NCBI RefSeq assembly: GCF_015244705.1
Contig: NZ_JABCQF010000001.1
Location: 682,001-746,000, forward strand
Origin: Gluconobacter potus
GTDB lineage: Bacteria > Pseudomonadota > Alphaproteobacteria > Acetobacterales > Acetobacteraceae
DNA: 64,000 nucleotides
Direction of reading: 5' to 3'
Within the stretch, counting starts at the first letter, position 1. Every line of letters begins with the position of its first letter. Made by a program: the position numbers and the translations under genes. This document shows, piece by piece, positions 43,706 through 58,960 of this stretch. Under the pieces are notes generated by a model. That model was not told the origin of the DNA. It ran no database searches and was given only the letters and a program-made list of their open reading frames with translations.

Positions 43706-44377
43706 TTACTGCGCAGACGTGCTGGTCGTGCTTCTGGATAGACGGCCCGTTGCGGAAGCCGGGAAGCCATCGACACCTGTCCGGTCGGTGGCGGCATTGC
43801 CGTTGTCATCCGGCATGCGATCCGTGTTCAGATAGCGCGGCAGTTCATCCGGCGCGGCTTTCTCGGGCATGTTGTGATTGCGGAACCAGATCGCGATCTG
43901 CTGCGTCATGGTCTGCGCCAGCGTATCCGAGACGCGTGCCTGAAGCGTTTCATCATTCAGCGTCTGGGCGAAATACTGCTCGAACGTGGTGTTGAAACCA
44001 TCGAGTGTCGTGGCATCCCCCTGGGCCAGCAGGCGCGGATTCTGCTCGACCGTGATCAGCACCCAGTGCGCCGAGCCCGTGCTCCGGGTGCGGCCGGACG
44101 TATTGTCCTGATGGATGTCGACCGCTTCTTCATTCATGCCGGAAGAGACTTTCAGCATGTATTTATGAGGATCTTCCGGCCCGGCGCCGGCCAGGTTTTT
44201 CTGCAGGGCCAGACGGAGTTCCTGGCCATAACGCCCCGGAATGTTGTCCACATAAATCTGTGCCAACTCTTCCGACATGTCGGTTTTCGGGGTCAGCTTT
44301 CCATAGAGGGGGGAAAAACCACACCCCCCCAGCAGAAGGAAAGCCGTGAGCAGAAAGGCGCCGCGCCGGTCAGACAT
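43706..44377 (-). CDS. lptE: LPS assembly lipoprotein LptE
   Basis: Outer-membrane partner and plug of LptD. 223 residues. Lipobox FLLLGGC near residue 19, followed by GFSPLYG, the LptE hallmark, and IYVDNIPGRYGQELRLALQKNL. The C-terminal 60 residues are Asn/Asp/Thr-rich and unconserved. One-base overlap with leuS upstream and direct abutment with holA downstream. Confidence 0.9.
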   Translation of the reverse strand: MSDRRGAFLLTAFLLLGGCGFSPLYGKLTPKTDMSEELAQIYVDNIPGRYGQELRLALQKNLAGAGPEDPHKYMLKVSSGMNEEAVDIHQDNTSGRTRSTGSAHWVLITVEQNPRLLAQGDATTLDGFNTTFEQYFAQTLNDETLQARVSDTLAQTMTQQIAIWFRNHNMPEKAAPDELPRYLNTDRMPDDNGNAATDRTGVDGFPASATGRLSRSTTSTSAQ

Positions 44378-46974
44378 CAGCCCGCCACCACGAAATTGAC
44401 GATCCGGTTCGGAACATGGATTTCCTTCACCAGCCGTTTTCCTTCAAGCAGACGGGCCACATTCGGCTCGTTCTTTGCAGCGGCCAGCACGTCTTCTTTC
44501 GGCGCATTGGGCGGAACCTCAATGGTCCCGCGCAGCTTACCAAGGATCTGCACACCGATCGTCACACTCTGCACGGCCAGCCATTTTTCTTCGGCTTCCG
44601 GCCAGGGACGCTCCACAACAAGTGCACTGCCCGGTTCCAGAACTGCCATCATGTCTTCCGCAAGATGGGGCATCATCGGAGCCGTCAGCAGACACAGCAC
44701 GCGTGCCGCCTCACGGCGCGCAGCGGCAATGCCGGCGCCTTCGATGCGTTCGGCATCGGCCAGAGCGGAGGTCAGCTCATGCAGACGGGCCACGGCAACA
44801 TTCGGCGTAAAGGCTTCGAGAGCTTCACCGACGGCGGCAATGGTCCGGTGCGTGACACGACGCAGGTCATCCCCTGCTGCACCATGCGCACTGTCGGCTG
44901 CATCCCGTGCGGCCACGGAAGCCACGAGACGATGCAGTCTCTGGCCAAAGCGTGCAGCAGCGGCAACGCCTGCGGCCGTCCATTCCATGTCCCTCTCCGG
45001 CGGGCTGTCGGAGAGAACGAACCAGCGGGCCGTATCCGCGCCATAACGCTCGATGATGTCGACCGGAGACACCGTGTTGCGCTTGGACTTGGACATCTTT
45101 TCCGAGCGGCCGACCTGAACCGGCGTTCCCGTCTCACGGCGCACCACCTGATCGCCGTGCCGCTCGACCTCTTCGGGATACAGCCAGCCGCTGTCGTCGC
45201 GGTAGCTCTCATGCGTCACCATGCCCTGGGTGAAGAGACCGGCAAACGGCTCGTCCACATCCAGATGCCCGGTTTCATGCATCGCGCGGGTGAAGAAACG
45301 CGCATAGAGCAGATGCAGGATCGCATGCTCGATGCCGCCGATATACTGGTCCACCGGCAGCCAGCCATTGGCAGCCGCCGGAACTGTCGGGGTTTCGGCA
45401 TGCGGGCTGGTGAAGCGGGCGAAATACCAGGAACTGTCAACGAACGTGTCGAACGTATCGGTCTCACGAACCGCAGGCTTGCCGCAATGCGGGCAGTTGA
45501 CGTGCTTCCAGGTCGGGTGGTGATCGAGCGGATTGCCGGGACGATCAAATGTCACGTCTTCCGGTAGGATGACGGGAAGCTGGTCATCCGGCACCGGAAC
45601 CGGGCCGCAGGTGTCGCAGTGGATGATGGGAATGGGGCAGCCCCAGTAGCGCTGCCGGGAAATGCCCCAGTCGCGCAGGCGCCAGTTCACGACACCCTTG
45701 CCAGCCCCCAGACCTTCAAGGCGCTCAATGACTTTCGTCCGCGCAGCAGCAGGATCCAGCCCATCCAGGAAACCCGAATTGAACAGGGTCGCATCCCCCG
45801 AAACGGCCTTCTTGCCCAGGACAAAGGTCTCGGCATCCTGCCCCGGAGGCAGCAGAACCTGCGGAACCGGCAGGTCGTACTTGCGGGCAAAGTCGAGATC
45901 GCGCTGATCGCCGCACGGGCAGCCGAAAACAGCGCCGGTGCCATAGTCCATCAGGACGAAATTGGCGATCCAGACAGGTGCCGTCTTTTCGGGATCAAGC
46001 GGGTTGGCCACGCGCAGACCCGTGTCGAACCCGCGCTTTTCGGCAGCTTCGATCACTTCCTCGGACGTCCCGAGACGGCGGCATTCCTCAATGAAGGCAG
46101 CGGCCTGCGGGTTGCTTTCCGCAACCTTGCGGGCCAGCGGATGTTCCGCTGAAATCCCGATGAAGCTCAGGCCAAACAGGGTATCGGGACGCGTCGTGAA
46201 GACTTCGACGCTGTCGAGATCCTCGTCATAGCCTGCGGGCGGCTGATGCAGCGCAAAGCGGACCCGGGCCCCTTCCGAACGGCCGATCCAGCGCTCCTGC
46301 ATCGTCCGGACGCGTTCGGGCCAGCGATCAAGCGTCTTCAGATCATCAAGCAGGGGCTGAGCGAATTTCGTGATTTTCAGGAACCACTGAGAGAGCTTCT
46401 TCTTCTCGATCAGCGCTCCCGAGCGCCACCCGCGCCCGTCCACGACCTGCTCGTTCGCAAGAACCGTCTCATCGACCGGATCCCAGTTGACCAGAGAATC
46501 CCGCCGCTCGACCAGACCGGCGGCCAGCATGTCGGTGAACAGCTTCTGCTGCTTGCCGTAATATTCCGGCAGGCAGGTTGCGATCTCACGGTCCCAGTCC
46601 AGCGAGAAGCCCAGACGCTGCAGTGTGCCCCGCATGGTGGCAATGTTGTCCATCGTCCACTTGCCAGGATGGACATTGCGTTCACGGGCGGCATTTTCTG
46701 CCGGCAGACCGAACGCGTCCCACCCCATGGGGTGCATGACAGCGAAACCACGGGCCCGCTTGTAGCGCGCGACCACATCCCCGAGCGTATAGTTTCGGAC
46801 ATGCCCGACATGAAGCTGCCCCGACGGGTACGGGAACATCTCCAGCACATAGTATTTCGGACGATCGGCCGGGGGAACATCCGGAACCGCAAAGGTATTC
46901 CGCCGCTTCCATTCGTTCTGCCAGAACGGTTCGCGGTTCTGGAAATCGAATGCGGGGGCTGTGGTATCGCTCAT
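44377..46974 (-). CDS. leuS: Leucyl-tRNA synthetase
   Basis: 865 residues from ATG 46974. The class I HIGH motif is [16 protein letters not shown] near residue 47, the CP1 editing domain includes [12 protein letters not shown] near residue 250, a zinc-like pair IHCDTCG and NCPHCG is near residues 435-480, DSSWYFARF lies near residue 522, and KMSKSKRN near residue 608. The C-terminal anticodon-binding and LeuS domains are complete. The longer frame from 47010 is rejected because it overlaps the DUF3576 stop. Confidence 0.96.
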
Positions 46975-46981
46975 GTCTGAC

Positions 46982-47500
46982 TCAGTTGTCCCGCTCGCCA
47001 TTTTCGGCACGCAGTTGACGTGCGCGGGTCAGGATACGGGTAGTAATATCGGAAGTGGTGGTGGCGGAAACGGGGGTGTCTTCCCACTGGCCATCCTGCA
47101 GAACCTGCCGGAACACGGAGACCCGCAGAGCGTCCGAACGCAGGCGACGGTCCAGCACATAGGCCGCAATCTTGAACCGCTCGTTCTGGCTGGAGGACGG
47201 CTGATACCAGTCGGTCAGGATGACACCGCCCACGGCATCGGCAGAGGCCAGCGGCATGAAGGACAGGGTGTCGATCGCTCCGCGCCACAGATAGGCGTTC
47301 ACACCACCGCGAAGCTCGTCAGCGCCACCTTCGGCACCGCGATCCACACCGAGAAGATGATTGCGAGGCGCGGTCAGGGTGCTGGGGTCACGCCCGCTGC
47401 CACAGGCGGCAAGAGCGCTGAGCGCCAGAAATCCCAGGGCAAGCCGGGTTGTCGGTCGGTGAAGGGGGCGAAGAACGGTCAACTGGATGCGAGACATCAT
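46982..47500 (-). CDS. DUF3576 family lipoprotein
   Basis: A 172-residue predicted lipoprotein: signal peptide [14 protein letters not shown] with lipobox Cys near residue 33, followed by GSGRDPST. The DUF3576 core is [51 protein letters not shown] and the C-terminal [14 protein letters not shown]. Function unknown, but it is conserved upstream of leuS-lptE in alphaproteobacteria, suggesting an outer-membrane role connected with LptE. Confidence 0.87.
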
Positions 47501-47635
47501 GTGTGGTCCTGCGGGCCGCGCCAGGGCCGGTCACAAGCAAGGATGCAGACTGGCGAGGCCTGCAGCCGGCAACTTCTGTTTGAGTGTTCATATCGTGCCG
47601 GCGGCAAGAGGCCAAGCACCTGAAGGAAGATGTTC

Positions 47636-49744
47636 TTATCCTTCGGCCACGCCGGCCTTTCTCAGCGCTTCAGCCAGTCTCGTTTGCAGTGTCTTCCCCC
47701 CGAAAGGAAAGCGGTCGATTGCTCTGGAAATGGTCAGATCCGGTACCAGACGAAGAAGGTGACGACAGACCTGATGCGCCTCTTCGGCACAGTCGCCCAT
47801 TTCAATCAGGGCGATGAGGTAATAAACCAGAGAACTCGGGTAGGATGGATAAAGACCGGATGACAACCGACCCATCGAGATTACTTCCTGATAGTCTTCC
47901 CCTAGCAACAGGACCATCATGAAAACCGGGCGCAGCAGTTCAAGCAACTGTGAGCGATACCCGTTTTCCAGCAGTAGCTTCACCTTTCCGGCTGCCGCCT
48001 TCGTCTCCCCACCCAGCAGGGCCAGAACAATCTCCGCCATCAGAAGATCAGGAGAATCCTTGTGAAGCCCCTCGATCCGCAAGATTCCCTCAGCCGCGGA
48101 CTGGGCAACCGAGAGAGCCGTACTGTGCATGGCAGGCTCGTGCATCAGATACGCGGCGAGAAGAACTTCGACTGCATGCAGATCCGGCATCAGCGCAATG
48201 GCGGTACGAACGCTGCGAAGACCTCGGGCAAAAACAGCTTTGGCTTCAGGGCTCCATTCATTCAGGAAGCGGATATAGCAGTGCAGGGCATCAATGAGTG
48301 CAATCGCACCGTCGTCCCCGTCAAGATCGCCGGCGCGTTCCAGCAGAAATCCAATTCTGTCGAAAAGTGAAGAATCATGCCGCAGGAGCAGCATGAAAGC
48401 CCGTAGCGCCATTCCAAGTGCTGAAAGTTCTGCATCCGGTCGGGTCGCAATTCGCCGGGCTTCGGTGACAAAGATGCTCCACTGCATTGCCTGGGCAGGC
48501 GCCAGAAGGCTGTTTTTTGCGGTATCCGGACCGGAATGTGGGAAATCGTAATGCGTTCCCCATATGATGACTCCCCCGCGCCGCGCGTCCAGAACGCGGA
48601 GGATCAGTCGGTTTTTGGCACCATCAGGACCTGCCCGCAGATTCCCGGCAATGATGTAATCCATGCCCCAGTTCCGATAGACCGCGGCCGCACTCACAGG
48701 GTCGGGCGGGGAGGTTTCGGGGAGCGCAAGGATGTCGAAAGTCCCCATGTTGACGAACATGAGTTCCAGTTGATCCCGCAGGCGCTGGCCCTGTTCTGCA
48801 AGCGTTTCATTCGCAGAAAACGGGGTCAGGAAAACCAGCGTGATTTTCCGGGGTTCTGCCGCAGCCGGATGTTGTGAGGCGTAATGCAACGGCAGGGCAA
48901 GCATCGGATCCGGGCGCATCACCGGAGCTGTGAAAGACGCTTCAGGGACTCGGGTAGCCAGACCTGCCTGGGAGAAGTCCCGGTCCAGATCCTTGCCGAA
49001 GCTTTCAGTTGGAATGCTCTTGATCAGCGCCTGTGTTGCCGGAGTAAGGATATGTCCTTCGGCGTCTCCGAAAAGATGTGTCATCTGGTCAGCGAGTGCG
49101 GCTGCCCGACCCTTGTCACCACGATGCAGGGCCATCTGAACTCTGGCACGCCAGGCAACTTCATTCAGGCCGTCAAACTTCAGCAGGCGTTCAGCCACGT
49201 CCTCGACCTGATCCGGATCTGTCAATTCCCGGACGGCATTTTCATAAACCTGCTGGAGATGTGTTGAGAGGCGCTCCCTCTGCTGGACAAGCCATTCGTC
49301 CAGCGCCGGATCCACCCCTGCCAGCTCTCCGAGCAGCGGTTCGTCAGGGAGGGTCACGCTGTCGATCGTCCGGACACTGACTGTGAGCAGCCTCTCGGCA
49401 TCCACCGAAGTGAGAGCCGGCTTCAGGGCCAGTGAGTGCCGCTGGACATCAATGACGTCCACGCCTAGCGGACTCAGCGCATCCAGAAGACGGTGAATTT
49501 CCTGCCGCAGAGATGCGCGCGCCATCTCTTCAGGGCGTTTGCTCCATAGCAGTTCCGCCAGCCGGGAGCGAAGGACAGGTTTCCGGTCAGAAAGAGCCAG
49601 AATAGCCAGAAGGGCCCGTGTCTTGCCCCCTACCGGAAGCACGCTCTCGCCTGTGAGAGTTCTTGCTTCCATCTGCCCGATCAGTCGCACGCGCAGAAGG
49701 GTGGGGTCGGTCTCGCGGATATGACGGGATGAACTGTCCATCAT
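47636..49744 (-). CDS. BTAD/SARP-type transcriptional regulator with FlgO/TolB-N-like and TPR regions
   Basis: A 702-residue one-component regulator from ATG 49744, which has GGAGG at a spacing of eight. The N-terminal winged helix (VRLIGQMEARTLTGESVLPVGGKTRALLAILALS) and BTAD domain (residues 95-230) bind DNA. A middle segment near residues 315-420 (ELMFVNMGTFDILALPE then WGMDYIIAGNLRAGPDGAKNRLILRVLDARRGGVIIWGTHYDF) looks like the nucleotidyl-cyclase-associated TolB-N/FlgO fold. The rest is helical TPR-like. No transmembrane segment; the effector is unknown. Confidence 0.78.
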   Translation of the reverse strand: MMDSSSRHIRETDPTLLRVRLIGQMEARTLTGESVLPVGGKTRALLAILALSDRKPVLRSRLAELLWSKRPEEMARASLRQEIHRLLDALSPLGVDVIDVQRHSLALKPALTSVDAERLLTVSVRTIDSVTLPDEPLLGELAGVDPALDEWLVQQRERLSTHLQQVYENAVRELTDPDQVEDVAERLLKFDGLNEVAWRARVQMALHRGDKGRAAALADQMTHLFGDAEGHILTPATQALIKSIPTESFGKDLDRDFSQAGLATRVPEASFTAPVMRPDPMLALPLHYASQHPAAAEPRKITLVFLTPFSANETLAEQGQRLRDQLELMFVNMGTFDILALPETSPPDPVSAAAVYRNWGMDYIIAGNLRAGPDGAKNRLILRVLDARRGGVIIWGTHYDFPHSGPDTAKNSLLAPAQAMQWSIFVTEARRIATRPDAELSALGMALRAFMLLLRHDSSLFDRIGFLLERAGDLDGDDGAIALIDALHCYIRFLNEWSPEAKAVFARGLRSVRTAIALMPDLHAVEVLLAAYLMHEPAMHSTALSVAQSAAEGILRIEGLHKDSPDLLMAEIVLALLGGETKAAAGKVKLLLENGYRSQLLELLRPVFMMVLLLGEDYQEVISMGRLSSGLYPSYPSSLVYYLIALIEMGDCAEEAHQVCRHLLRLVPDLTISRAIDRFPFGGKTLQTRLAEALRKAGVAEG

Positions 49745-50205
49745 CTTCGCCGCCTCCACGATCAGCATCTCCTGTCGAAAAGGACAGAAGTTCCAAACCG
49801 TTTCAGTATGTCATTATAAGCAACGCGGATCATGGCAATTCTCAACCCAGTCAAACCTGCAAGACCTCTACAAAAAGGTATTGTGTAGGATGCCAGCTGC
49901 GAATGCGCTCTATCCTACTCAGGATTTGGTACTACCAGAAAACAGATCACCTTTTTGATGGAAAAGAGGTGTCGTGCAAGGCCGTAGCAGAAGCCTTGCT
50001 TAAAAGACTAACCAGAAAAAGTTTAGATAGCATAAACAGGGCGTGTAATCTTCATCCCCGACGATATGCCCTGTCGAGGGTTTCGATTTTCCTGTTTTCC
50101 CGGATGTTGCCGGTTTGGATGAAGAATTCCTGACGTCTTCCACTGACTTATATGGCGCAGATACGGTTGCAGCGATACCATAACTGCGATACGAGAGACG
50201 TGTTT
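49745..50205. other. Intergenic region between the BTAD regulator and tRNA-Arg
   Basis: About 460 bp with no supported gene; several short frames run through it without ribosome-binding sites. It carries the regulator promoter on the minus strand and a tRNA promoter on the right. Composition is more AT-rich than neighbouring genes. Confidence 0.5.
50167..50195 (+). promoter_or_regulatory. Candidate promoter of tRNA-Arg(CCT)
   Basis: TTGCAG (50167-50172), 17 bp and TACGAG (50190-50195) are spaced as a housekeeping promoter, and predicted initiation near 50202 falls just before the tRNA 5' end at 50206. Confidence 0.45.
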
Positions 50206-50511
50206 GTCCGCGTAGCTCAGCAGGATAGAGCACAGGATTCCTAAGGTTTTGAATTGGGCGCCATGATGGGAAACCGCATGGTGGATTCGCTCAAATTCGG
50301 GGAACGCTCTGATCGTCTCGATCGTGCCAATCCCGAGCCAAGCTTTCCGGCGTGCCGGTAAGAAGGTGTAGAGACTGTACGGGCGACACCTTGGCGTTCT
50401 GGCCATGGTGAAGAGACAGTCCAGACCACGAACATGCTTGCGGGCATGGCGGTGAAAACCGAAGTGGTATGAATCCTGGGGCCGGAGGTTCGAATCCTCT
50501 CGCGGACACCA
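50206..50511 (+). tRNA. tRNA-Arg (CCT), interrupted by a group I intron
   Basis: Exon 1 is 50206-50242 and exon 2 is 50472-50511. Joined, they give acceptor GTCCGCG/CGCGGAC, anticodon stem CAGGA/TCCTG around the 7-nt loop TTCCTAA with anticodon CCT at 50240-50242, T-stem GGAGG/CCTCT with loop TTCGAAT, discriminator A508 and encoded CCA (50509-50511). The intron separates anticodon position 36 from base 37. A tRNA finder not allowing for introns would miss this gene, leaving AGG codons without their dedicated tRNA. Confidence 0.95.
50243..50471 (+). mobile_element. Group I intron (IC3-like) in tRNA-Arg(CCT)
   Basis: A 229-nt insertion between T36 and A37 of the tRNA. It follows group I rules: the upstream exon ends in T, the intron ends in G (50471). 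GGG at 50256-50258 can pair with the anticodon CCT, including the splice-site G-T wobble, as internal guide, directly 5' of a P2-like hairpin capped GAAA (CCATG/CATGG, 50261-50281). Core segments GAGCCAAGC (50335-50343), GAAGGTGTAGAGACT (50362-50376) and CAGTCCAG (50417-50424) match the Azoarcus tRNA-Ile intron as I remember it. No internal ORF or endonuclease gene. Confidence 0.93.
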
Positions 50512-50671
50512 ACAAACACAATATTTCCAGAACCACATTTCTTGCCCCCGCAGGTCAGGGGACGCGGGTTCTTCCCGCAGCAGGCCTTGCGGTTGTCCGG
50601 GTGGGGAGACCTCCGGGCAGATGGTCACCTAAAGCGAGATGATGTCTCCATCACCTCGCTGTGTTCAGCCC

Positions 50672-53176
50672 TCAGAAGCGGGCTGAAACATCCAGGTAAT
50701 AATACCCGCCACTCATGCCGAGCTGGGATGTGCTCATGTAATATTTGGGCACACCGAGATAACGGTTCCCTTCAGGAACGACGGACGGAAATTTGGCGAA
50801 GATGTTGTTCCCGCCGATCGTGGCGCTCCATTTGGGCGTGATGTTGTAGGTAACGGAGGCGTTCGTCGTCCATTTCGGCACATTCTGGAACTCCAGGAAG
50901 TGGCTCGTGGAATAGGTATATGGCCCTGTATAGTAGGTGAGCTGGGACGTTGTCTCGCCATAGCGGATTTCATGGACGGAGACCGCCCATTTGTTCCGGG
51001 CAGAATGCCAGGTCCCACCGAAGATGATCTTGCTGCGGGGATACGCCGTGGTGAGGTAGGCGATATACTGGGCGTTCAGAAGGGCTGCTCCGGTTGTGCT
51101 GGTCGCCTGATGGCGCAGGCGCGTGCGATTCAGGTTGATCGCGACATCCCAGTCCGCATGACCATAACGACCGAAATCGGTCGGATAGGTCGCCGTCAGA
51201 TCGAGACCCTGTGTCCGGGTGTTGGCGACATTGGCAAACCAGTGCGTGGCGAGCTGGCTTCCAGTCCAGTTTTCAGATCCTGCCGGCAGGTTGAAGCCGT
51301 CAGCCTGGAGTGCGCTGTAGGCCTGCGATCCGTAGATCGTACCCCCGGGCATGATCCGGTCGCGCAGGTCGATCTGATACACGTCGACGGTAACGTGCAG
51401 CTTCTTGATCGGTTCGACGATGATGCCGCCTTCGGCACTCGTGGACGATTCCGGCTTCAGGGTTGAGGCGCCGTTGGCGAGCGCGCCAGCGGAGTTCGCC
51501 GCAATGATGCCGCTGGCAGCCGTTGGAGAGACGGAGAGTGCGGAATAATGTTCCTGCGCGAGCGTCGGCGCATGGAAGCCATTGCTGAATGTGCCGCGGA
51601 TCGCAAAGCGTGGGCTGAAATCGTAACGGGTCGAGATCTTGCCGGTCTTGGTGTTGCCGACATCCGTGTAATGCTCGACGCGGCCAGCCAGATCGATCTG
51701 CCAGTGCTTCATCAGGTTCGTTGAGATGTCGAGATAGCCCGCCGCAACGTCACGGGACCATTTGCCCGCATTGGCCGGGTTGGTGCCGGGAAAGCCGTCC
51801 GAGCTGGAATAGGTGTAGCTCGCCGGAGAGCCTGTGCCGATGGCATAGGCCTCGTAACGATAGGACGCACCACCAGCGACGTTGATGGCATAAGGCCAGA
51901 AGGAGGTGCGGAACTTGCGGCTCAGGTCGACGCTGTTCGTCCACTGCGTGTCGTTATAGGACTGTGCTGCGAAGGATGTCGGGGTCTGCCCCGTGGCGGT
52001 GTACAGGCCCACATTTGTTGAGCTCTCGGTATCGAAGGCATCGTAGTCCCGTCCGAAGACCGATGAAACATCCCAGTGCCAGCCCGCCAGTGTCCCCCTG
52101 AAGCCGGCCGTCAATTCGTAGTCGTCCTCGTTCAGGGCTTCGATGGGCGTATAGCCGTAAGGGTAGATTGAGGCATAGCCGGGATAGCTGGCGAGCGTGG
52201 AGGGCAGGCGGTAGTTCTGATATGATTCCGCATGCCGGTGCGCATAGGTCGCGCTGGCATAGGCCTGCACGTTGTCAGTGATGTTGTAGCCGGCATTGAT
52301 GGCGACGCTCTCACGGGTCTGCTCGGGCTGCCCGAGAAGCTGATTGACATAGGTGTTGGTCCGGTTGTCCGCCCCGGACCGGACCGTATGGTCCTGATGA
52401 ACGAAATCGCCGCCGATATGAACGAAACCGCGATTGTTCAGATTCAGGCCGCCGTCGATGAACACACCTTGCTGGAAACCGTCGCCTTCGCTCGTGATTC
52501 CCGTGTTCGAGCGCATGGTCAGACCATGGTTCTGCTTCTTCAGGATGATGTTGACCACGCCTGCAATCGCGTCTGAACCGTACTGGGCGGACGCACCGTC
52601 ACGCAGAACTTCGATATGGTCGATCATGGACATGGGGATCATGTCGATATCGACAGGCGTTGACCCCTGCGCCGGGCCGCCATCCGCATAGATATTCGCC
52701 GTGGTATGGCGCCGCTTGCCGTCCACCAGAACGAGCGTTTCGTTGGGGTTGAGCCCGCGGAGCGAAATCGTGTCGGTCAGGGCACCCGCATCAAAACCGC
52801 CTGTGGGAACGGTGAGGGATGGCAGCAACAGCGCCAGGGAGTCGCGGAGTGTGGGCTGGCCGGTACCTGTCAGCTGGCGATTCGTCACGATGTCGACAGG
52901 AGCGATCGAATCCCGCGCCTTCTTGCCGAACTCACGCGTCCCCGTCACAACGACCGCTTCACTGCCCCCCGCTACTTCCACCGGCGGTTTCGGGACCGGC
53001 CGGGAAGTGGCCTTCCGGGACGGAGGGGTTGCATGGGTCTGTTTGTGCTGAACCGGAACGGATTGCGTTGTCGCAGCGCGGCCTTCGTCCATCATCAGGA
53101 CAAATGCAGAGCCAAGAAGGGAAGTCCCCAGAAGGGTTACATGACGAAGAGAAAGCTGGGTCAGCACTTTTACCAC
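50672..53176 (-). CDS. TonB-dependent outer membrane receptor
   Basis: An 834-residue receptor from a GTG start (GTG 53167 also possible; no strong ribosome-binding site). Signal sequence, then a short linker and VVVTGTREFGKKARDSIAPVDIV near residue 74, the TonB box/plug start. Plug motifs are DTISLRGLNPNETLVLVDGKRRHT and IDHIEVLRDGASAQYGSDAIAGVVNI. The barrel ends in GYYYLDVSARF, with the aromatic C-terminal signature. The ligand is unknown; the class includes siderophore and nutrient receptors. It diverges from a Tat-exported MRJP-like gene, with an inverted repeat in between. Confidence 0.9.
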   Translation of the reverse strand: MVKVLTQLSLRHVTLLGTSLLGSAFVLMMDEGRAATTQSVPVQHKQTHATPPSRKATSRPVPKPPVEVAGGSEAVVVTGTREFGKKARDSIAPVDIVTNRQLTGTGQPTLRDSLALLLPSLTVPTGGFDAGALTDTISLRGLNPNETLVLVDGKRRHTTANIYADGGPAQGSTPVDIDMIPMSMIDHIEVLRDGASAQYGSDAIAGVVNIILKKQNHGLTMRSNTGITSEGDGFQQGVFIDGGLNLNNRGFVHIGGDFVHQDHTVRSGADNRTNTYVNQLLGQPEQTRESVAINAGYNITDNVQAYASATYAHRHAESYQNYRLPSTLASYPGYASIYPYGYTPIEALNEDDYELTAGFRGTLAGWHWDVSSVFGRDYDAFDTESSTNVGLYTATGQTPTSFAAQSYNDTQWTNSVDLSRKFRTSFWPYAINVAGGASYRYEAYAIGTGSPASYTYSSSDGFPGTNPANAGKWSRDVAAGYLDISTNLMKHWQIDLAGRVEHYTDVGNTKTGKISTRYDFSPRFAIRGTFSNGFHAPTLAQEHYSALSVSPTAASGIIAANSAGALANGASTLKPESSTSAEGGIIVEPIKKLHVTVDVYQIDLRDRIMPGGTIYGSQAYSALQADGFNLPAGSENWTGSQLATHWFANVANTRTQGLDLTATYPTDFGRYGHADWDVAINLNRTRLRHQATSTTGAALLNAQYIAYLTTAYPRSKIIFGGTWHSARNKWAVSVHEIRYGETTSQLTYYTGPYTYSTSHFLEFQNVPKWTTNASVTYNITPKWSATIGGNNIFAKFPSVVPEGNRYLGVPKYYMSTSQLGMSGGYYYLDVSARF

Positions 53177-53194
53177 GCAATAAGTTAGTAATTT

Positions 53195-53220
53195 ATACGA
53201 AACACAAAATCGTTTCGTAT
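53195..53220. promoter_or_regulatory. Inverted-repeat operator candidate upstream of the TonB receptor
   Basis: ATACGAAAC (53195-53203), 8 bp, GTTTCGTAT (53212-53220): a perfect 9-bp dyad, 18 bp upstream of the receptor GTG and between divergent genes. The size and spacing resemble operators of dimeric repressors. No regulator gene is adjacent. Confidence 0.6.
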
Positions 53221-53354
53221 TTGCGGAACGTCAACATAATTTTCCGGTTCAGGAAAAATGTCGATCACATTTTGTAGGGGCTGTGGCGTTCCTTACACGC
53301 TTGGGGCGTTATGGAAACGGTGTGTCTTGCAAATGGATTCCGGAGAGTTTGTGC

Positions 53355-54551
53355 ATGAAGCGACGTCATTTCCTGCGGGCAGCATCAGCGGCCCCAGCGT
53401 CTCTCGCAGTTTCTGCCGCGCTGCCGGTTGCTCAGGCGTGCGCAGCTGGAAACGAGGATAACGGCACAGGGCCTTACGGGGAGCTTGATATTGTTGCCGA
53501 ATTCGATGGTCCTGGCCCCTCGGGGATCGTGGTTCTCCCGAATGGCAGAATTTTTGTCGGTTTTCCACGCCATGCCGTGGATCATAAGGGAGCAACTCTC
53601 GGCGAACTGGTCGGTGGGAAGGTCGTGCCTTATCCCAGTGCCGAAATGAGTCTCCCGGGGAATGTTCCGGCAGAGTGTCTTGTTTCCGTTCACGGCATGA
53701 CCATGGATCGGAACGGCAGGCTCTGGGTGATTGATGACGGCAAGCGCGCCGGACATCCCCTGCAGCCGGGGGCAGCGAAGATCGTCTGCATCGATCCGGC
53801 AACAAACCGGGTCGCGCACAAGATCATCCTCAAGGCGCCGGTGCTTCTGCCGGACAGTCACATGAACGATCTGCGGGTGTCGCTGTCCCATGGGGCGCAG
53901 GGGACGGTCTTCGTGACCGATTCATCCTTCGGAACAAGCCCCGGACTGGTGATCGTTGATGTCGCGACCCAGCAGGCCCGTCGCGTGCTGACGACGCATC
54001 CCGCAATCCTTCCGGAAACCGGATTTCTGGCCATCGTGGAGGGTGAGCCCCGCCGCTATATCCCCGGTCATCCGCAGTTGGTCTCGGGCGGCGTGGATGG
54101 CATCGCGCTGACTAAGGACGAAAAACGTCTCTATTTCGCACCCCTGACCAGCCGTCGGCTTTACAGCCTGTCGGTGGATCTTCTCGCAGATCCGGCGTCG
54201 GATAATGCCGTTCTCGGCCCCGCAATCCGCGATGAAGGCGAAAAGGGCGTGGCAGATGGTCTGGCCCTGGATGACCAGAACCGGCTCTATACGACAAATT
54301 ACGAGCACGACTGCATTCTGCGGCGCGACCCGGATGGATCGTTCAAAATGATGCTCCGGGATCCGCGTGCCCTCTCACCTGACGGAATTTTCGCAACCGC
54401 GGATCATGTCTACTGCACGTTCGGGCAGTGGAACCGGCTGGCATCGTTCAATGGCGGCACCGATCGCAGGGTCACGCCCTATCTTCTGATTCGTTTTCCG
54501 ATCGAGCAGTCGCAGCCTTATGATGCGTTGCCGCTGGGGCAGAAATCCTGA
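53355..54551 (+). CDS. Tat-exported yellow/major royal jelly-like protein (SMP-30-like beta propeller)
   Basis: 398 residues from ATG 53355 with GGAGAG eight bases upstream. The N-terminus KRRHFLRAASAAPASLAV is a twin-arginine signal. The mature protein has the yellow/MRJP pattern: GPYGELDIVAEFDGPGPSGIVVLPNGRIFVGFPR, HGMTMDRNGRLWVIDDG, MNDLRVSLSHGAQGTVFVTDSSFG, and VADGLALDDQNRLYTTNYEHDCILRR, repeating Asp-x-x-Asn-Arg propeller turns. Often annotated L-dopachrome tautomerase-related; actual activity is unknown. Divergent from the receptor gene, which suggests joint use of one substrate. Confidence 0.8.
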   Translation: MKRRHFLRAASAAPASLAVSAALPVAQACAAGNEDNGTGPYGELDIVAEFDGPGPSGIVVLPNGRIFVGFPRHAVDHKGATLGELVGGKVVPYPSAEMSLPGNVPAECLVSVHGMTMDRNGRLWVIDDGKRAGHPLQPGAAKIVCIDPATNRVAHKIILKAPVLLPDSHMNDLRVSLSHGAQGTVFVTDSSFGTSPGLVIVDVATQQARRVLTTHPAILPETGFLAIVEGEPRRYIPGHPQLVSGGVDGIALTKDEKRLYFAPLTSRRLYSLSVDLLADPASDNAVLGPAIRDEGEKGVADGLALDDQNRLYTTNYEHDCILRRDPDGSFKMMLRDPRALSPDGIFATADHVYCTFGQWNRLASFNGGTDRRVTPYLLIRFPIEQSQPYDALPLGQKS

Positions 54552-54562
54552 GCCCCGATACG

Positions 54563-54603
54563 AAAAAGCCCCAGCGGAACCATCCACCGGGGCTTTCTTT
54601 TTT
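54563..54603 (+). terminator. Terminator after the MRJP-like gene
   Basis: AAAGCCCC (54565-54572) pairs with GGGGCTTT (54589-54596) around a 16-nt loop, followed by C and six T. It lies 14 bp after the stop and, with its A run, could also serve the convergent yidB-like gene. Confidence 0.85.
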
Positions 54604-54630
54604 ACAGGTATTGAATGCCAGAGGGGGAGC

Positions 54631-54990
54631 TCAGGCCGTCGTTGACGGAGCCTGGCCCTCAGGCGTGTGCTTGTCGACGGCAGCGGGAAGAAGCTGAGCC
54701 AGTGCGGGCAGGATTGTGCCAGCGGGAAGGCCTGTCTTGGCGACGATCGTCTGGATCTGCTGATCCGTCAGGAGGCTGCGCAGTTCATCCGCCGTAATGG
54801 GCAGGTTCTCGCCATGGCCGATCCAGGACTGGATTTTGTCGGTCAGGCCAGCGCTCTGGGCCTGGCTGATAAGCATGTTCAGGCCATCTCCCTTGAGGAA
54901 ATCGCCAATGCTGCCGCCAAACTTTTCGCCCAGCTGTCCGCCGATGGCGCCGACAGCCTGGTTCATGAGGTTTCCGAGAAAGCCGCTCAT
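54631..54990 (-). CDS. YidB family protein (DUF937)
   Basis: 119 residues from ATG 54990, with GGAAG nine bases upstream; the longer frame from 55170 runs into minE and is discarded. The N-terminal Gly-rich helices MSGFLGNLMNQAVGAIGGQLGEKFGGSIGDFL and LISQAQSAGLTDKIQSWIGHGENLPITADELRSLL are typical of YidB/DUF937. Function unknown. It follows minE by 64 bp on the same strand and may belong to that transcript. Confidence 0.8.
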   Translation of the reverse strand: MSGFLGNLMNQAVGAIGGQLGEKFGGSIGDFLKGDGLNMLISQAQSAGLTDKIQSWIGHGENLPITADELRSLLTDQQIQTIVAKTGLPAGTILPALAQLLPAAVDKHTPEGQAPSTTA

Positions 54991-55054
54991 CCGTGTTCTT
55001 CCATTTCTTTCAGACGCGGCACTCCGGCCGTCGTCGGGTATCTGGTGGTCAGGG

Positions 55055-55333
55055 TTACGAGACCCGTTTGCCGCTGAGCTGCTGCGGAACCTCGACGTCG
55101 ATTTCGAGCATGGAGCAGCCGCTGCCACGGTCCACCTTGATCTGGACCTTGTCCTGGTCGACGGCGACATGACGCGCGATGACTTCCATGATCTCCTTGT
55201 GAAGCTGGCGGATCAGATCGGACTCACCGGCCTCACCCGCACCGCGCTCATGCGCAAGCAGGATCTGCAGACGGTCCTTGGCGACGCTGCTGGACTGCTG
55301 GCGCCGGGCGAAGATGTTTGAGAGAAAACTCAT
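55055..55333 (-). CDS. minE: Cell division topological specificity factor MinE
   Basis: 92 residues opening [30 protein letters not shown], the membrane-anchor and MinD-contact region, then [27 protein letters not shown] of the topological domain. ATG 55333 sits four bases after the minD stop; a longer frame is rejected. MinE drives MinD off the membrane at mid-cell. Confidence 0.94.
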
Positions 55334-55337
55334 GAAC

Positions 55338-56150
55338 TCATGCGTCCCTCTTGAAAAGCCAGTCAAAGAAACCGCGCTTCTCGACTGGAACCGAGACCTC
55401 GAGCTTCTCGCCGCTCAGGCGACGGGCTGCTTCGAAATAGGCGCGGGCAGGAAGGCTCGTGGGTGCGGCCAGCGTAACGGGCGCACCGACATTGGAAGAC
55501 TTCAGCACATCCTCGCTTTCGGGCACGATGCCGAGCAGCGGAATGGACAGGATTTCGAGAACGTCTTCGACGCTCAGCATTTCCTTGCGCGCGGCGCGGG
55601 CAGGGTCATAGCGCGTCAGGAGCAGATGCTTCTCGACTTTCTCGCCCTGTTCGGCCTTCTGGGTCTTGCTGTCGAGCAGGCCGATGATCCGGTCGGAGTC
55701 ACGAACCGAGCTGACTTCCGGATTGGTCACGATCACGGCCATGTCGGCGTGATACATGGCCAGCTGCGCGCCACGCTCGATCCCGGCCGGGCTGTCGCAG
55801 ATGACCCAGTCGAACTTCTCGCGAAGCTCATCCATCACGCGGGCTACACCCTCGGAGGTCAGCGCGTCCTTGTCACGGGTCTGGGAAGCGGGGAGGATGG
55901 ACAGGGTTTCGCAGCGCTTGTCCCGGATAAGGGCCTGCGACAGGCGGGCATCGCCCTGCACGACGTTGATGAGATCGAAAACCACCCGGCGTTCGGCGCC
56001 CATGACCAGATCGAGGTTCCGAAGGCCGACATCGAAATCAACCACCACGACATTCTGCCCGCTCTGAGCGAGAGCGGCGCCGAGCGCGGCGGTCGATGTC
56101 GTCTTGCCGACGCCACCCTTGCCGGAAGTGACAACCAGAACCTTGGCCAT
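55338..56150 (-). CDS. minD: Septum site-determining ATPase MinD
   Basis: 270 residues. Deviant Walker [21 protein letters not shown] near residue 9, switch-I-like [44 protein letters not shown] near residue 119 and the C-terminal amphipathic membrane helix [13 protein letters not shown]. It recruits MinC to the membrane and oscillates with MinE. Order on the minus strand is minC, 148-bp gap, minD, minE. Confidence 0.96.
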
Positions 56151-56298
56151 GAATACTCCAAAAAAACGTCTTTGCGGTCTGCGGTTGCCTGTGACGGGTT
56201 ACCGCAACCGGTTTCCCATTCTATGAAAGTTTTATACCCTGCGGCAACCTGCGAATAGGGGCGCTTTCGTGGCAGGCCCCATCAATTCACAGTTCAGT

Positions 56299-57027
56299 TT
56301 ACGCCGTCAGGGGGAGAACCCGAACGCGGTCCTCGTTCAGGGTGGCCTGCGCGGCCTGCCCGAGGATCGCGGGATCGATGTCTTCCGTCACGGCATAATA
56401 CCCGTCGAGAGCCAGCAGTTCGGCCAGCATCCGGCTTGCGAAAATCCGGCTCTGGGACTGTCCGCCCACTCCGGCGATCGCCCGGCCCCGCAACGTTCCG
56501 TATACATGAATGGATCCCGCAGCCACGATCTCCGCGCCGGACGAGACCGATCCGAGGATGATCACGTCGCCCTGCATGTGCTGGATGCTCTGCCCCGAGC
56601 GGACGGTCTGCTCGACGATGAGTGTTCCGCTACTGGAAACCGGTGCCGCGGCGCTCACGGCCGGATCTTCCGGAATCTCGACTTCACCGGCTGGACGGCC
56701 ACCATCAAGCGTTTCGGGCCAGTCCCAGTGTGCCACCGCCGGCCAGTGACGGCTCCCGCCCTCGATGCCGATGACCCGGACACCGCGGCTTCGGATATCA
56801 TCCAGAAGAGTCGTCAGGCCCGGCGTGGTTTCGCTGAGGAGGCCGAGGTCCAGAATGACCGGTTTTCCGGTGAAAAGCCCGCCTGAACGCGCGATCTGGT
56901 AGTCGAGACCTTCCAGCCACGCGGGAAGAGGTGCCTCGGGAGACAGGACGAGTGCAAGGAAAGAGCGGCCGCGTGCACGGATGCGCATGGGGGTGTTCGA
57001 AGAGGGTGCGGAAACGGGATCGGGCAT
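56299..57027 (-). CDS. minC: Septum site-determining protein MinC
   Basis: FtsZ assembly inhibitor, 242 residues from ATG 57027. N-terminal domain residues 1-120 include MRIRARGRSFLALVLSPEAPLPAWLEGL. The C-terminal beta-helix holds the family core VRSGQSIQHMQGDVIILGSVSSGAEIVAAGSIHVYGTLRGRAIAGVGGQSQSRIFASRM. The start region is variable; no strong ribosome-binding site is seen. Divergent from the FzlA-like gene. Confidence 0.93.
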   Translation of the reverse strand: MPDPVSAPSSNTPMRIRARGRSFLALVLSPEAPLPAWLEGLDYQIARSGGLFTGKPVILDLGLLSETTPGLTTLLDDIRSRGVRVIGIEGGSRHWPAVAHWDWPETLDGGRPAGEVEIPEDPAVSAAAPVSSSGTLIVEQTVRSGQSIQHMQGDVIILGSVSSGAEIVAAGSIHVYGTLRGRAIAGVGGQSQSRIFASRMLAELLALDGYYAVTEDIDPAILGQAAQATLNEDRVRVLPLTA

Positions 57028-57104
57028 CGTGAAAATCGTCGGACCTGTGTCGGGCAGTCGGTGAGGCTCTTGTGAGCGGGTATCGGCTGACTTAGAAAGT
57101 GGCA

Positions 57105-57773
57105 ATGCGTATCCTGCATCACCTTCCACTTTCTCCGCAATGCCGTCTCGTGAGGCTCGCCCTCAGCGAGAAGCGACTCCCGTTCGAACCCGTCATCGAG
57201 CGGGTCTGGGAACAGCGTGAGGAATTCCTGCATCTCAATCCCGCGGGCGAGGTTCCCGTGCTGGTTGAGGAAAATGGTCTGGCCGTGCCGGGCGGGCGTG
57301 TCATCTGCGAATATCTCGAAGACGCCTATCCCGATACCCCGCTTCTGGGGCGTACTTTCGCCGACCGCGTCGAGACGCGACGGCTGGTGGACTGGTTCGA
57401 CACCCGCTTCGCCCAGGAAGTCACCCGCAACCTGCTCGGCGAAAAGGTCGACAAGCGCCAGTTCGGACGCGGCCACCCGGACGGTAATGCGCTGCGGGCC
57501 GGCTATGCGAACATGCGCTTTCATCTCGATTATATCGGCTGGCTGGCGGAGACGCGGTCCTGGCTTGCGGGACCTGCGCTGTCGCTCGCGGATTTTGCGG
57601 CTGCGGCTCATCTGTCGGCGTTGGATTTCATCGGGGACGTGAACTGGTCCAAGGCGCCTGCCGCGAAGGACTGGTATGCGCGGGTGAAGTCGCGCCCCTG
57701 TTTCCGGGGACTGCTGTCTGACAAGGTCAGTGGCATCACGCCGCCGGCGCATTACGCCAATCTGGATTTCTGA
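57105..57773 (+). CDS. Glutathione S-transferase family protein, FzlA-like
   Basis: 222 residues opening MRILHHLPLSPQCRLVRLAL; GTG 57099 is an equally possible start. An N-terminal thioredoxin-like domain (HLNPAGEVPVLVEENGLAVPGGRVICEYLE) is followed by the helical GST domain, ending in PPAHYANLDF. The segments LRAGYANMRFHLDYIGWLAETRSWLAG and the C-terminus match, from memory, FzlA, an FtsZ-binding GST-fold division factor essential in Caulobacter. Its place divergent from minC supports a division role rather than detoxification; this is an inference. Confidence 0.75.
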   Translation: MRILHHLPLSPQCRLVRLALSEKRLPFEPVIERVWEQREEFLHLNPAGEVPVLVEENGLAVPGGRVICEYLEDAYPDTPLLGRTFADRVETRRLVDWFDTRFAQEVTRNLLGEKVDKRQFGRGHPDGNALRAGYANMRFHLDYIGWLAETRSWLAGPALSLADFAAAAHLSALDFIGDVNWSKAPAAKDWYARVKSRPCFRGLLSDKVSGITPPAHYANLDF

Positions 57774-57781
57774 GAACCGCC

Positions 57782-58960
57782 ATGATGAACCCCGATGTGA
57801 TTGTGCTCGGAGCCGGTGCAGCGGGGCTGATGGCTGCGGCGACGGCCGGTCAGAACGGGGCGCGGGTCCTGGTTCTGGATCACGGACCCGAGCCGGGGCG
57901 CAAGATCCTGATTTCTGGCGGCGGCCGATGCAATTTCACGCATCTTGAGACCGGGCCCAACTGTTTCATCTCGCAGAACCACCATTTCGCGCGTTCCGCA
58001 CTGGCGCGATACACGCCGCAGAATTTTCTCAAGCTGGTGAACCGCTACGGCATTGCCTGGCATGAGAAGGCGCGCGGGCAGCTCTTCTGTGACGGCTCGG
58101 CCGGGCAGATCGTGGACATGCTGGTCTCGGAATGCCGGACCGCCGGGTGTGAGTTGCGGATGCAAACCCGCATTCTGGATGTGCGGCAGGCGGAGCACGG
58201 CTTCATCGTCGTCACGGATGGGGGCGAGATCCGGACCGGGGCGGTGATCCTCGCAACGGGCGGCCTGTCCATTCCCAAGCTCGGAGCGTCGGACCTGTCG
58301 CTGCGGCTGGCGCGGAAATTCGGTTTGCGGGTTGTGCCGCCAGCGCCTGCGCTCGTGCCGCTGGTTCTGGCGGACGCCGATCCGGAGCTTGCGGGCGTGT
58401 CGCTGCCGATCGTGGCGCGGCTGGGCAAGAAAGGACCGCGGTTTGAAGACGGAATGGTCTTCACCCATCGGGGCGTGTCCGGCCCGGCGATCCTTCAGAT
58501 CTCGTCCTATCTTGAAGCCGGGGATGCGGCGCAGATCGATCTTCTGCCCGGGCAGAATGCATTGAATGTGCTGCTGAAGGTCAAGAAAGACCGTCCGAAG
58601 GCCCTGCCGCCGAGTCTGCTGGAGGCACTGCCCCAGCGGCTGGCCCGCGTTCTGGCTGCCGGGCTGGGGGACACGATGCTGGCGAACCAGCCGGACCGTG
58701 CAATCAAGGCACTGGCCGAGCGTGTGTCGAACTGGCAGCTTCGCCCCGCCGGCACGGAAGGATACGCCAAGGCGGAAGTCATGCGCGGCGGGATCGATAC
58801 GCGGGATATGTCGTCCCAGACGCTGGAGGCCCGGGACATTCCGGGGCTATATGCGATCGGGGAGGCCGTGGATGTGACGGGCTGGCTGGGCGGTCACAAC
58901 TTCCAGTGGGCCTGGGCGAGTGGTGTTGCGGCAGGGCGGGCGGCGGCCGGACATCGCTAG
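57782..58960 (+). CDS. BaiN/HI0933-type FAD-dependent oxidoreductase
   Basis: 392 residues. The FAD motif VIVLGAGAAGLMAAATAGQNGARVLVLDHGPEPGRKILISGGGRCNFT near residue 5 is the HI0933/YhiN signature. Second FAD-associated segment GAVILATGGLSIPKLGASD near residue 152, MVFTHRGVSGPAILQ, and GLYAIGEAVDVTGWLGGHNFQWAWASGVAAG at the C-terminus. A flavoprotein of unproven substrate. Eight bases after the FzlA-like gene, so cotranscribed. Confidence 0.87.
   Translation: MMNPDVIVLGAGAAGLMAAATAGQNGARVLVLDHGPEPGRKILISGGGRCNFTHLETGPNCFISQNHHFARSALARYTPQNFLKLVNRYGIAWHEKARGQLFCDGSAGQIVDMLVSECRTAGCELRMQTRILDVRQAEHGFIVVTDGGEIRTGAVILATGGLSIPKLGASDLSLRLARKFGLRVVPPAPALVPLVLADADPELAGVSLPIVARLGKKGPRFEDGMVFTHRGVSGPAILQISSYLEAGDAAQIDLLPGQNALNVLLKVKKDRPKALPPSLLEALPQRLARVLAAGLGDTMLANQPDRAIKALAERVSNWQLRPAGTEGYAKAEVMRGGIDTRDMSSQTLEARDIPGLYAIGEAVDVTGWLGGHNFQWAWASGVAAGRAAAGHR

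What the first reader, a model, noticed from the sequence alone, without database searches (positions are those of the whole stretch)
50243..50471. Group I intron splits tRNA-Arg(CCT) and its guide triplet matches the anticodon
Seen: a cloverleaf with all arms appears only if 50243-50471 is removed. The removed piece ends in G, follows T, has a GAAA-capped P2-like hairpin and core blocks like those of the Azoarcus intron. GGG (50256-50258) just before P2 can pair with the anticodon CCT as the internal guide, as GUG pairs with CAU in Azoarcus. Known: IC3 introns in alphaproteobacterial tRNA-Arg. Inference: this one is active and self-splicing. AGG decoding would depend on splicing.
Basis: partly seen in the sequence, partly recalled or inferred. 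Interest (0 to 1): 0.85.

Follow-up and report, generated by a model that had tools for sequence, protein, structure and literature searches.

The report
Known self-splicing intron in arginine tRNA
A short catalytic RNA intron interrupts the only recognised gene for one arginine tRNA in an acetic acid bacterium (Gluconobacter-like); it is real and well preserved, but it belongs to an intron family that has been known and tested in related bacteria for decades.

Summary
ARAGORN with introns allowed finds a complete tRNA-Arg(CCT) at 50206-50511 (+), split by a 229-nt intron at exactly 50243-50471. Rfam's group I model matches over its gathering cut-off (54.6 bits against 50). A 60-pair structure with the P3/P7 pseudoknot is upheld by compensatory changes across 64 tRNA-Arg(CCT) introns. 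The guide GGG (50256-50258) pairs with the anticodon CCU, with U-G at the splice site. Relatives in tRNA-Thr(GGU) and tRNA-Asn(GUU) show GCC and GAC (three loci, by eye). The host is Gluconobacter-like. The split pattern is in 26 of 26 genomes of the genus, an intact site in 0 of 26. It is already in print: the tRNA-Arg(CCU) intron family was first found in Agrobacterium and self-splices in Bartonella (PMC7717549); a tRNA(Arg) split by a group I intron-like sequence is tabulated for Gluconobacter oxydans and four other acetic acid bacteria (PMC4596401). One claim is too strong: the genome also has tRNA-Arg(TCT), which may read AGG by wobble, so AGG decoding need not depend on splicing. Ordinary; low interest.

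The parts
50206..50242 (+). 5' exon of tRNA-Arg(CCT), ends with the anticodon CCT (50240-50242)
   Evidence: ARAGORN with introns allowed
50243..50471 (+). group I intron, 229 nt, ends in G50471
   Evidence: ARAGORN, RF00028 54.6 bits, covariation
50256..50258 (+). internal guide GGG, pairs with CCU 50240-50242 as P1 (U50242-G50256 wobble at the splice site)
   Evidence: GGG in 23 of 23 tRNA-Arg(CCT) splits among the 30 family loci examined
50259..50283 (+). P2 hairpin capped by GAAA (50270-50273)
50287..50292 (+). P3 5' strand, pairs with 50381-50386
   Evidence: 384 of 384 cells paired, 3 of 6 pairs with changes on both sides
50297..50336 (+). P4-P5 (P4: 50297-50302 with 50331-50336)
   Evidence: P4 invariant
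50338..50366 (+). P6 and P6a
50373..50377 (+). P7 5' strand (expected guanosine site), pairs with 50417-50421; pseudoknot with P3
   Evidence: P7 invariant
50387..50410 (+). P8
50425..50468 (+). P9 with P9a and GAAA-capped P9b (GAAA 50454-50457)
50472..50511 (+). 3' exon of tRNA-Arg(CCT) including encoded CCA

Best explanation
A group I intron of the known alphaproteobacterial tRNA-Arg(CCU) family sits between the anticodon and base 37 of the only recognised tRNA-Arg(CCT) gene of a Gluconobacter-like bacterium. Shown here: the gene, exact intron borders, conserved ribozyme fold, guide pairing, presence of the split in all sampled genomes of the genus, and no intact copy found. Inferred from relatives and from the general mechanism (PMC3984707 passages): the transcript folds, guanosine bound at P7 attacks behind U50242, the freed 5' exon attacks behind G50471, and the exons join to give mature tRNA-Arg(CCU). 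Within the acetic acid bacteria it appears to have come down by descent at a leuS-linked locus.
For: ARAGORN gene and borders; RF00028 over cut-off and the only match at E <= 0.001 in the genome; covariation over 64 introns with slide and shuffle controls; 112 of 119 pattern-matched named loci have the 3' exon, and all 112 introns end in G; guide and anticodon change together: Arg CCU/GGG, Thr GGU/GCC (two loci), Asn GUU/GAC (one locus) (by eye); the tree places it in a 14-row set of Gluconobacter and Neokomagataea introns with 96% SH-aLRT support, nearest G. aidae at 96% identity; split pattern in 26 of 26 genus genomes, intact site in 0 of 26; of 150 family genomes 40 are split (34 by pattern plus 6 by ARAGORN), 44 have an intact site, none both; a LeuRS hit at E <= 1e-10 within the fetched stretch in 31 of 56 Acetobacteraceae loci; [quoted passage not shown] split tRNA(Arg) tabulated in five acetic acid bacteria (PMC4596401 passages).
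Against: No splicing assay on this copy. P1 and P7 do not covary in the set used. The genome is a draft (67 contigs) in which no tRNA-Ile(GAT) or tRNA-Ala(TGC) was found, so an unseen intact tRNA-Arg(CCT) is not fully excluded. No promoter-like site by a sigma-70 consensus scan, a weak test in this group. Most relatives match RF00028 below its cut-off: 39 of 150 family genomes at E <= 0.001, only 8 of 150 over the cut-off.
Confidence: 0.96

Rival explanations
1. The intron is decayed: a relic in a tRNA pseudogene, AGG being read by tRNA-Arg(UCU).
For: tRNA-Arg(TCT) is present and AGG is rare, 8 of 4237 codons in nine ORFs.
Against: Exons form a full cloverleaf with CCA; every pair of the named structure is a standard pair in the window copy; the split is kept in 26 of 26 genus genomes, and the structure is kept by compensatory changes among relatives, which decay would not give.
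Confidence: 0.03
2. The fold needs a protein helper in the cell, so the intron is spliced but not strictly self-splicing.
For: PMC7717549 states that protein co-factors are presumed for group I introns in vivo (passage).
Against: The Bartonella family member self-spliced in vitro.
Confidence: 0.15
3. The intron reached this lineage by recent horizontal transfer or transposition rather than descent.
For: Seven of 58 Acetobacterales introns fall in a 96%-supported set with other orders; split and intact genomes occur in the same genus group, g50 and g76; the title of Paquin et al. 1999 claims horizontal transmission (title seen in the reference list; paper not held).
Against: For this copy: nested among Gluconobacter introns and present in all 26 sampled genomes of the genus; LeuRS near the split tRNA in several acetic acid genera.
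Confidence: 0.04

Closest known systems
Alphaproteobacterial tRNA-Arg(CCU) group I intron family (first in Agrobacterium tumefaciens; BbgpI of Bartonella bacilliformis)
   Same: Same tRNA, same place behind CCT, group I helices; introns of other Bartonella species lie in the same tree and alignment (PMC7717549 passages)
   Different: Only sequence and loop lengths, as far as seen
Split tRNA(Arg) of acetic acid bacteria (Asaia bogorensis, Acetobacter pasteurianus, Gluconobacter oxydans, Komagataeibacter medellinensis, Gluconacetobacter diazotrophicus)
   Same: Table note c in PMC4596401: one tRNA(Arg) split by a sequence homologous to a group I intron (the passage does not name the anticodon). 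Loci of Asaia bogorensis (L211) and G. diazotrophicus (L215) here have the CCT split
   Different: Another species of the same group
Azoarcus tRNA-Ile(CAU) group IC3 intron
   Same: Small intron behind the anticodon; a three-base guide pairs with the CAU tag, the isoleucine anticodon (PMC6274277 passages); GAAA-capped P2 and P9 (Azoarcus side recalled)
   Different: Other tRNA and guide triplet; here P9 is a three-way junction with an extra P9a (Azoarcus single P9 recalled, not fetched)
[quoted passage not shown]
   Same: Group I intron in a tRNA anticodon loop (PMC4033280 passages)
   Different: Other tRNA and, from recall, another position in the loop

Membership tests
Group I intron | Match to the group I covariance model over the curated cut-off | tested here: met
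   RF00028 54.6 bits, gathering 50
Group I intron | P3/P7 pseudoknot with P4-P6 and P8 | tested here: met
   P3 384 of 384 cells paired with changes on both sides in 3 of 6 pairs; P7 318 of 318 paired but invariant
Group I intron | 5' splice site behind U that pairs with G of an internal guide (P1) | tested here: met
   U50242-G50256; GGG in 23 of 23 Arg(CCT) splits among 30 family loci examined
Group I intron | Last intron base is G | tested here: met
   G50471; 112 of 112 named introns with a 3' exon
Group I intron | P10 between guide and 3' exon | tested here: inconclusive
   Three possible pairs, AAU 50472-50474 with AUU 50253-50255 (read); not tested by covariation
Group I intron | GTP-dependent splicing | not testable with these tools
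   Self-splicing shown for the Bartonella relative only (PMC7717549 passages)
tRNA-Arg(CCU) intron family of Alphaproteobacteria | Sits directly behind anticodon CCT of tRNA-Arg and aligns end to end with other members | tested here: met
Subgroup IC3 | Formal subgroup assignment (no P5abc, IC3 core) | tested here: inconclusive
   Short P5 and GAAA-capped P2 and P9b fit, but no subgroup model was available

The most novel reading that the evidence does not exclude
The intron, called sporadic and horizontally spread in the title of a 1999 paper, has become a fixed, vertically inherited part of tRNA-Arg(CCU) in the Gluconobacter genus group with no intact back-up, perhaps because splicing has been recruited to set the supply of the AGG-reading tRNA.
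Probability: 0.08. Interest if true: 0.45.

Novelty: already known. Interest (0 to 1): 0.1.

Why it matters
It matters mainly for annotation: a tRNA finder that does not allow introns misses this gene, so the genome would be listed as lacking tRNA-Arg(CCT). The comparison adds modest facts: the split pattern in 26 of 26 genomes of the genus, no genome among 150 of the family found with both a split and an intact copy, and a guide triplet that follows the anticodon of the host tRNA in the few other tRNAs seen.

Tried and rejected
Decayed relic: rejected on intact exons, intact structure and compensatory changes. Second intact tRNA-Arg(CCT) in the genome: not found; of 48 tRNA matches, 46 are over cut-off and carry other anticodons, and the two weak ones are not tRNAs by ARAGORN. 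Mobile element at the tRNA: I looked only at the translated ORFs of 44000-58000, by eye; a LeuRS, a TonB-type receptor and a large regulator-like protein are neighbours and I saw no integrase, but no domain search was run and the rest of the window was not examined (one search printed no translations). Plasmid search with the regulator-like gene: no match, uninformative. The MFE fold of the bare intron was not used, since it cannot show pseudoknots. ARAGORN called three tRNA-Arg(CCT) splits 'His' (L062, L073, L076); the sequences show CCT and GGG, and the joined exons give tRNA-Arg(cct) among other candidate joins. Of the 119 pattern loci seven lack the 3' exon: L141 (cyanobacterial MAG) and L199 (archaeal MAG) were treated as chance, and in five the fetched stretch ends 62-233 bases behind the 5' splice site. 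My first extraction with ARAGORN covered 80 of the 119 loci and confirmed 70; one search then used the exon sequences on all 119. A search for literature on tRNA-Thr, tRNA-Asn or tRNA-Lys group I introns in bacteria listed nothing on point in its 15 shown rows of 378; that does not show that none exists. The zero-overlap probability ignores kinship and is not used as evidence.

Full report
What was checked. The region was read directly. ARAGORN without introns misses the gene. With introns allowed it gives tRNA-Arg(cct) at window 50206-50511, + strand, with a 229-nt intron at 50243-50471, and the joined exons give a full cloverleaf with an encoded CCA. Rfam's group I model matches 50241-50443 over its whole length at 54.6 bits, above the gathering score of 50. 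It is the only such match at E <= 0.001 in the 3.42-Mb genome.

Anatomy. The 5' splice site lies behind U50242, the last anticodon base. CCU pairs with GGG 50256-50258, giving the usual U-G pair at the splice site. P2 is capped by GAAA. P3 (50287-50292 with 50381-50386) and P7 (50373-50377 with 50417-50421) form the pseudoknot around P4-P6 and P8. P9 carries a variable hairpin and a GAAA-capped one. The intron ends in G50471. In canonical tRNA numbering the place is 36/37.

Is the fold real? I aligned 64 tRNA-Arg(CCT) introns: the window's plus 63 of the 112 full named ones, kept by a greedy 92% identity filter. One row (L130) holds ten masked bases. Over 60 named pairs 94.5% of cells pair, against 30.5-44.1% when partners are slid by 1-3 columns; 33 pairs show changes on both sides against a shuffled mean of 24.3; 0 of 500 shuffles reach any observed measure. 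Limits: the structure was drawn from the window's sequence, which favours it over slid versions; P1, P4, P6 and P7 never vary here; P1 was fixed by the collecting pattern; the distal part of P5 pairs in only 65.2% of cells, and two distal P8 pairs fail in 41 and 32 of 63 rows.

The guide. Independently of that pattern, 30 loci with RF00028 matches were examined: the window's own and 29 of the other 40 matches in a sample of 150 family genomes (39 genomes match at E <= 0.001, 8 over the cut-off). Twenty are Arg(CCT) splits by ARAGORN and share ATTGGGC. Three more were miscalled 'His' by ARAGORN but are Arg(CCT) splits with ACTGGGC. The other seven lie in other tRNAs. Two in tRNA-Thr(GGT) have the guide GCC and one in tRNA-Asn(GTT) has GAC, read by eye. 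The guide therefore follows the anticodon, as base pairing requires, though on three loci only. A three-base guide binding the isoleucine anticodon CAU is described for Azoarcus (PMC6274277, passages).

Relatives. 112 have the 3' exon, and all 112 introns end in G. They lie in Acetobacterales (57), Hyphomicrobiales (34), Rhodobacterales (13) and Rhodospirillales (7), with one in an unassigned genome. In a quick tree (SH-aLRT only; 52 of 109 inner branches under 80) the window's intron sits in a 14-row set of Gluconobacter and Neokomagataea introns with 96% support; the nearest is Gluconobacter aidae (96% over 221 columns). A 96%-supported set of 52 rows holds 51 of the 58 Acetobacterales introns and one unassigned; the other seven fall among other orders, so some horizontal spread or poor resolution remains.

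Fixation. In the window's genus 26 of 26 genomes (its own included) have the split-site pattern and 0 of 26 an intact site at up to one mismatch. In the family sample 34 of 150 have the split pattern, six more are split by ARAGORN, and 44 of 150 have an intact site. None has both, and 66 of 150 met neither test; some of these 66 have an RF00028 match or a half-length tRNA match and may be split with other letters. Of 56 Acetobacteraceae loci (stretches of at most 8 kb) 31 have a LeuRS hit at E <= 1e-10; the 12 shown are 74.8-95.7% identical and span Gluconobacter, Saccharibacter, Asaia, Swaminathania, Komagataeibacter, Gluconacetobacter, Ameyamaea and Novacetimonas. This points to descent at one locus within the acetic acid bacteria.

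Decoding. The genome's other Arg tRNAs are TCT, CCG and ACG. tRNA-Arg(UCU) may read AGG by wobble (general knowledge). AGG is 8 of 4237 codons in nine ORFs that I took for genes. So the claim that AGG decoding depends on splicing is not shown. Absence of an intact CCT gene is also limited by the draft assembly: no tRNA-Ile(GAT) or tRNA-Ala(TGC) was found among its tRNAs, probably because the rRNA operons are collapsed (inference).

What is known. [quoted passage not shown] Paquin et al. 1999; neither read here). PMC4596401 (passages) notes a tRNA(Arg) split by a group I intron-like sequence in five acetic acid bacteria including Gluconobacter oxydans; the passage does not name the anticodon. 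The finding is therefore a correct reading of an already known element.

Verdict. Observation confirmed, interpretation supported apart from the AGG claim, novelty 'already known', interest 0.1.

Noticed in passing
L067 (G024) and L075 (G088): Group I introns directly behind the anticodon of tRNA-Thr(GGT), 208 and 197 nt by ARAGORN, with the guide GCC by eye. I do not know whether this host tRNA is reported; the 15 shown rows held nothing on point.
   Followed up: partly
L050 (G143): Group I intron (78.5 bits, best of the family sample) in tRNA-Asn(GTT), 247 nt, guide GAC by eye; the same genome has an intact tRNA-Arg(CCT).
   Followed up: partly
L055 (G113), L056 (G014), L078 (G017): Group I introns in what look like tRNA-Leu genes of Acetobacteraceae; L056 is TAA by ARAGORN, L055 was called CAA, L078 was called Ile and is Leu(TAA) only by my reading of the loop.
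   Followed up: partly
L066 (G079): Second group I intron in a genome that also has the tRNA-Arg(CCT) split; the exons read like tRNA-Lys(TTT) with the intron inside the anticodon, by eye only.
   Followed up: partly
genus groups g50 (G049, G128) and g76 (G076, G143): Split and intact tRNA-Arg(CCT) in different species of one genus group, a natural place to study gain or loss of the intron.
   Followed up: no
window 47636-49768 (-): Large regulator-like protein next to the tRNA (named by eye) that diverges fast: 85% identity to Gluconobacter aidae, 50-84% to the other full-length Gluconobacter hits shown, 39% to Asaia.
   Followed up: no
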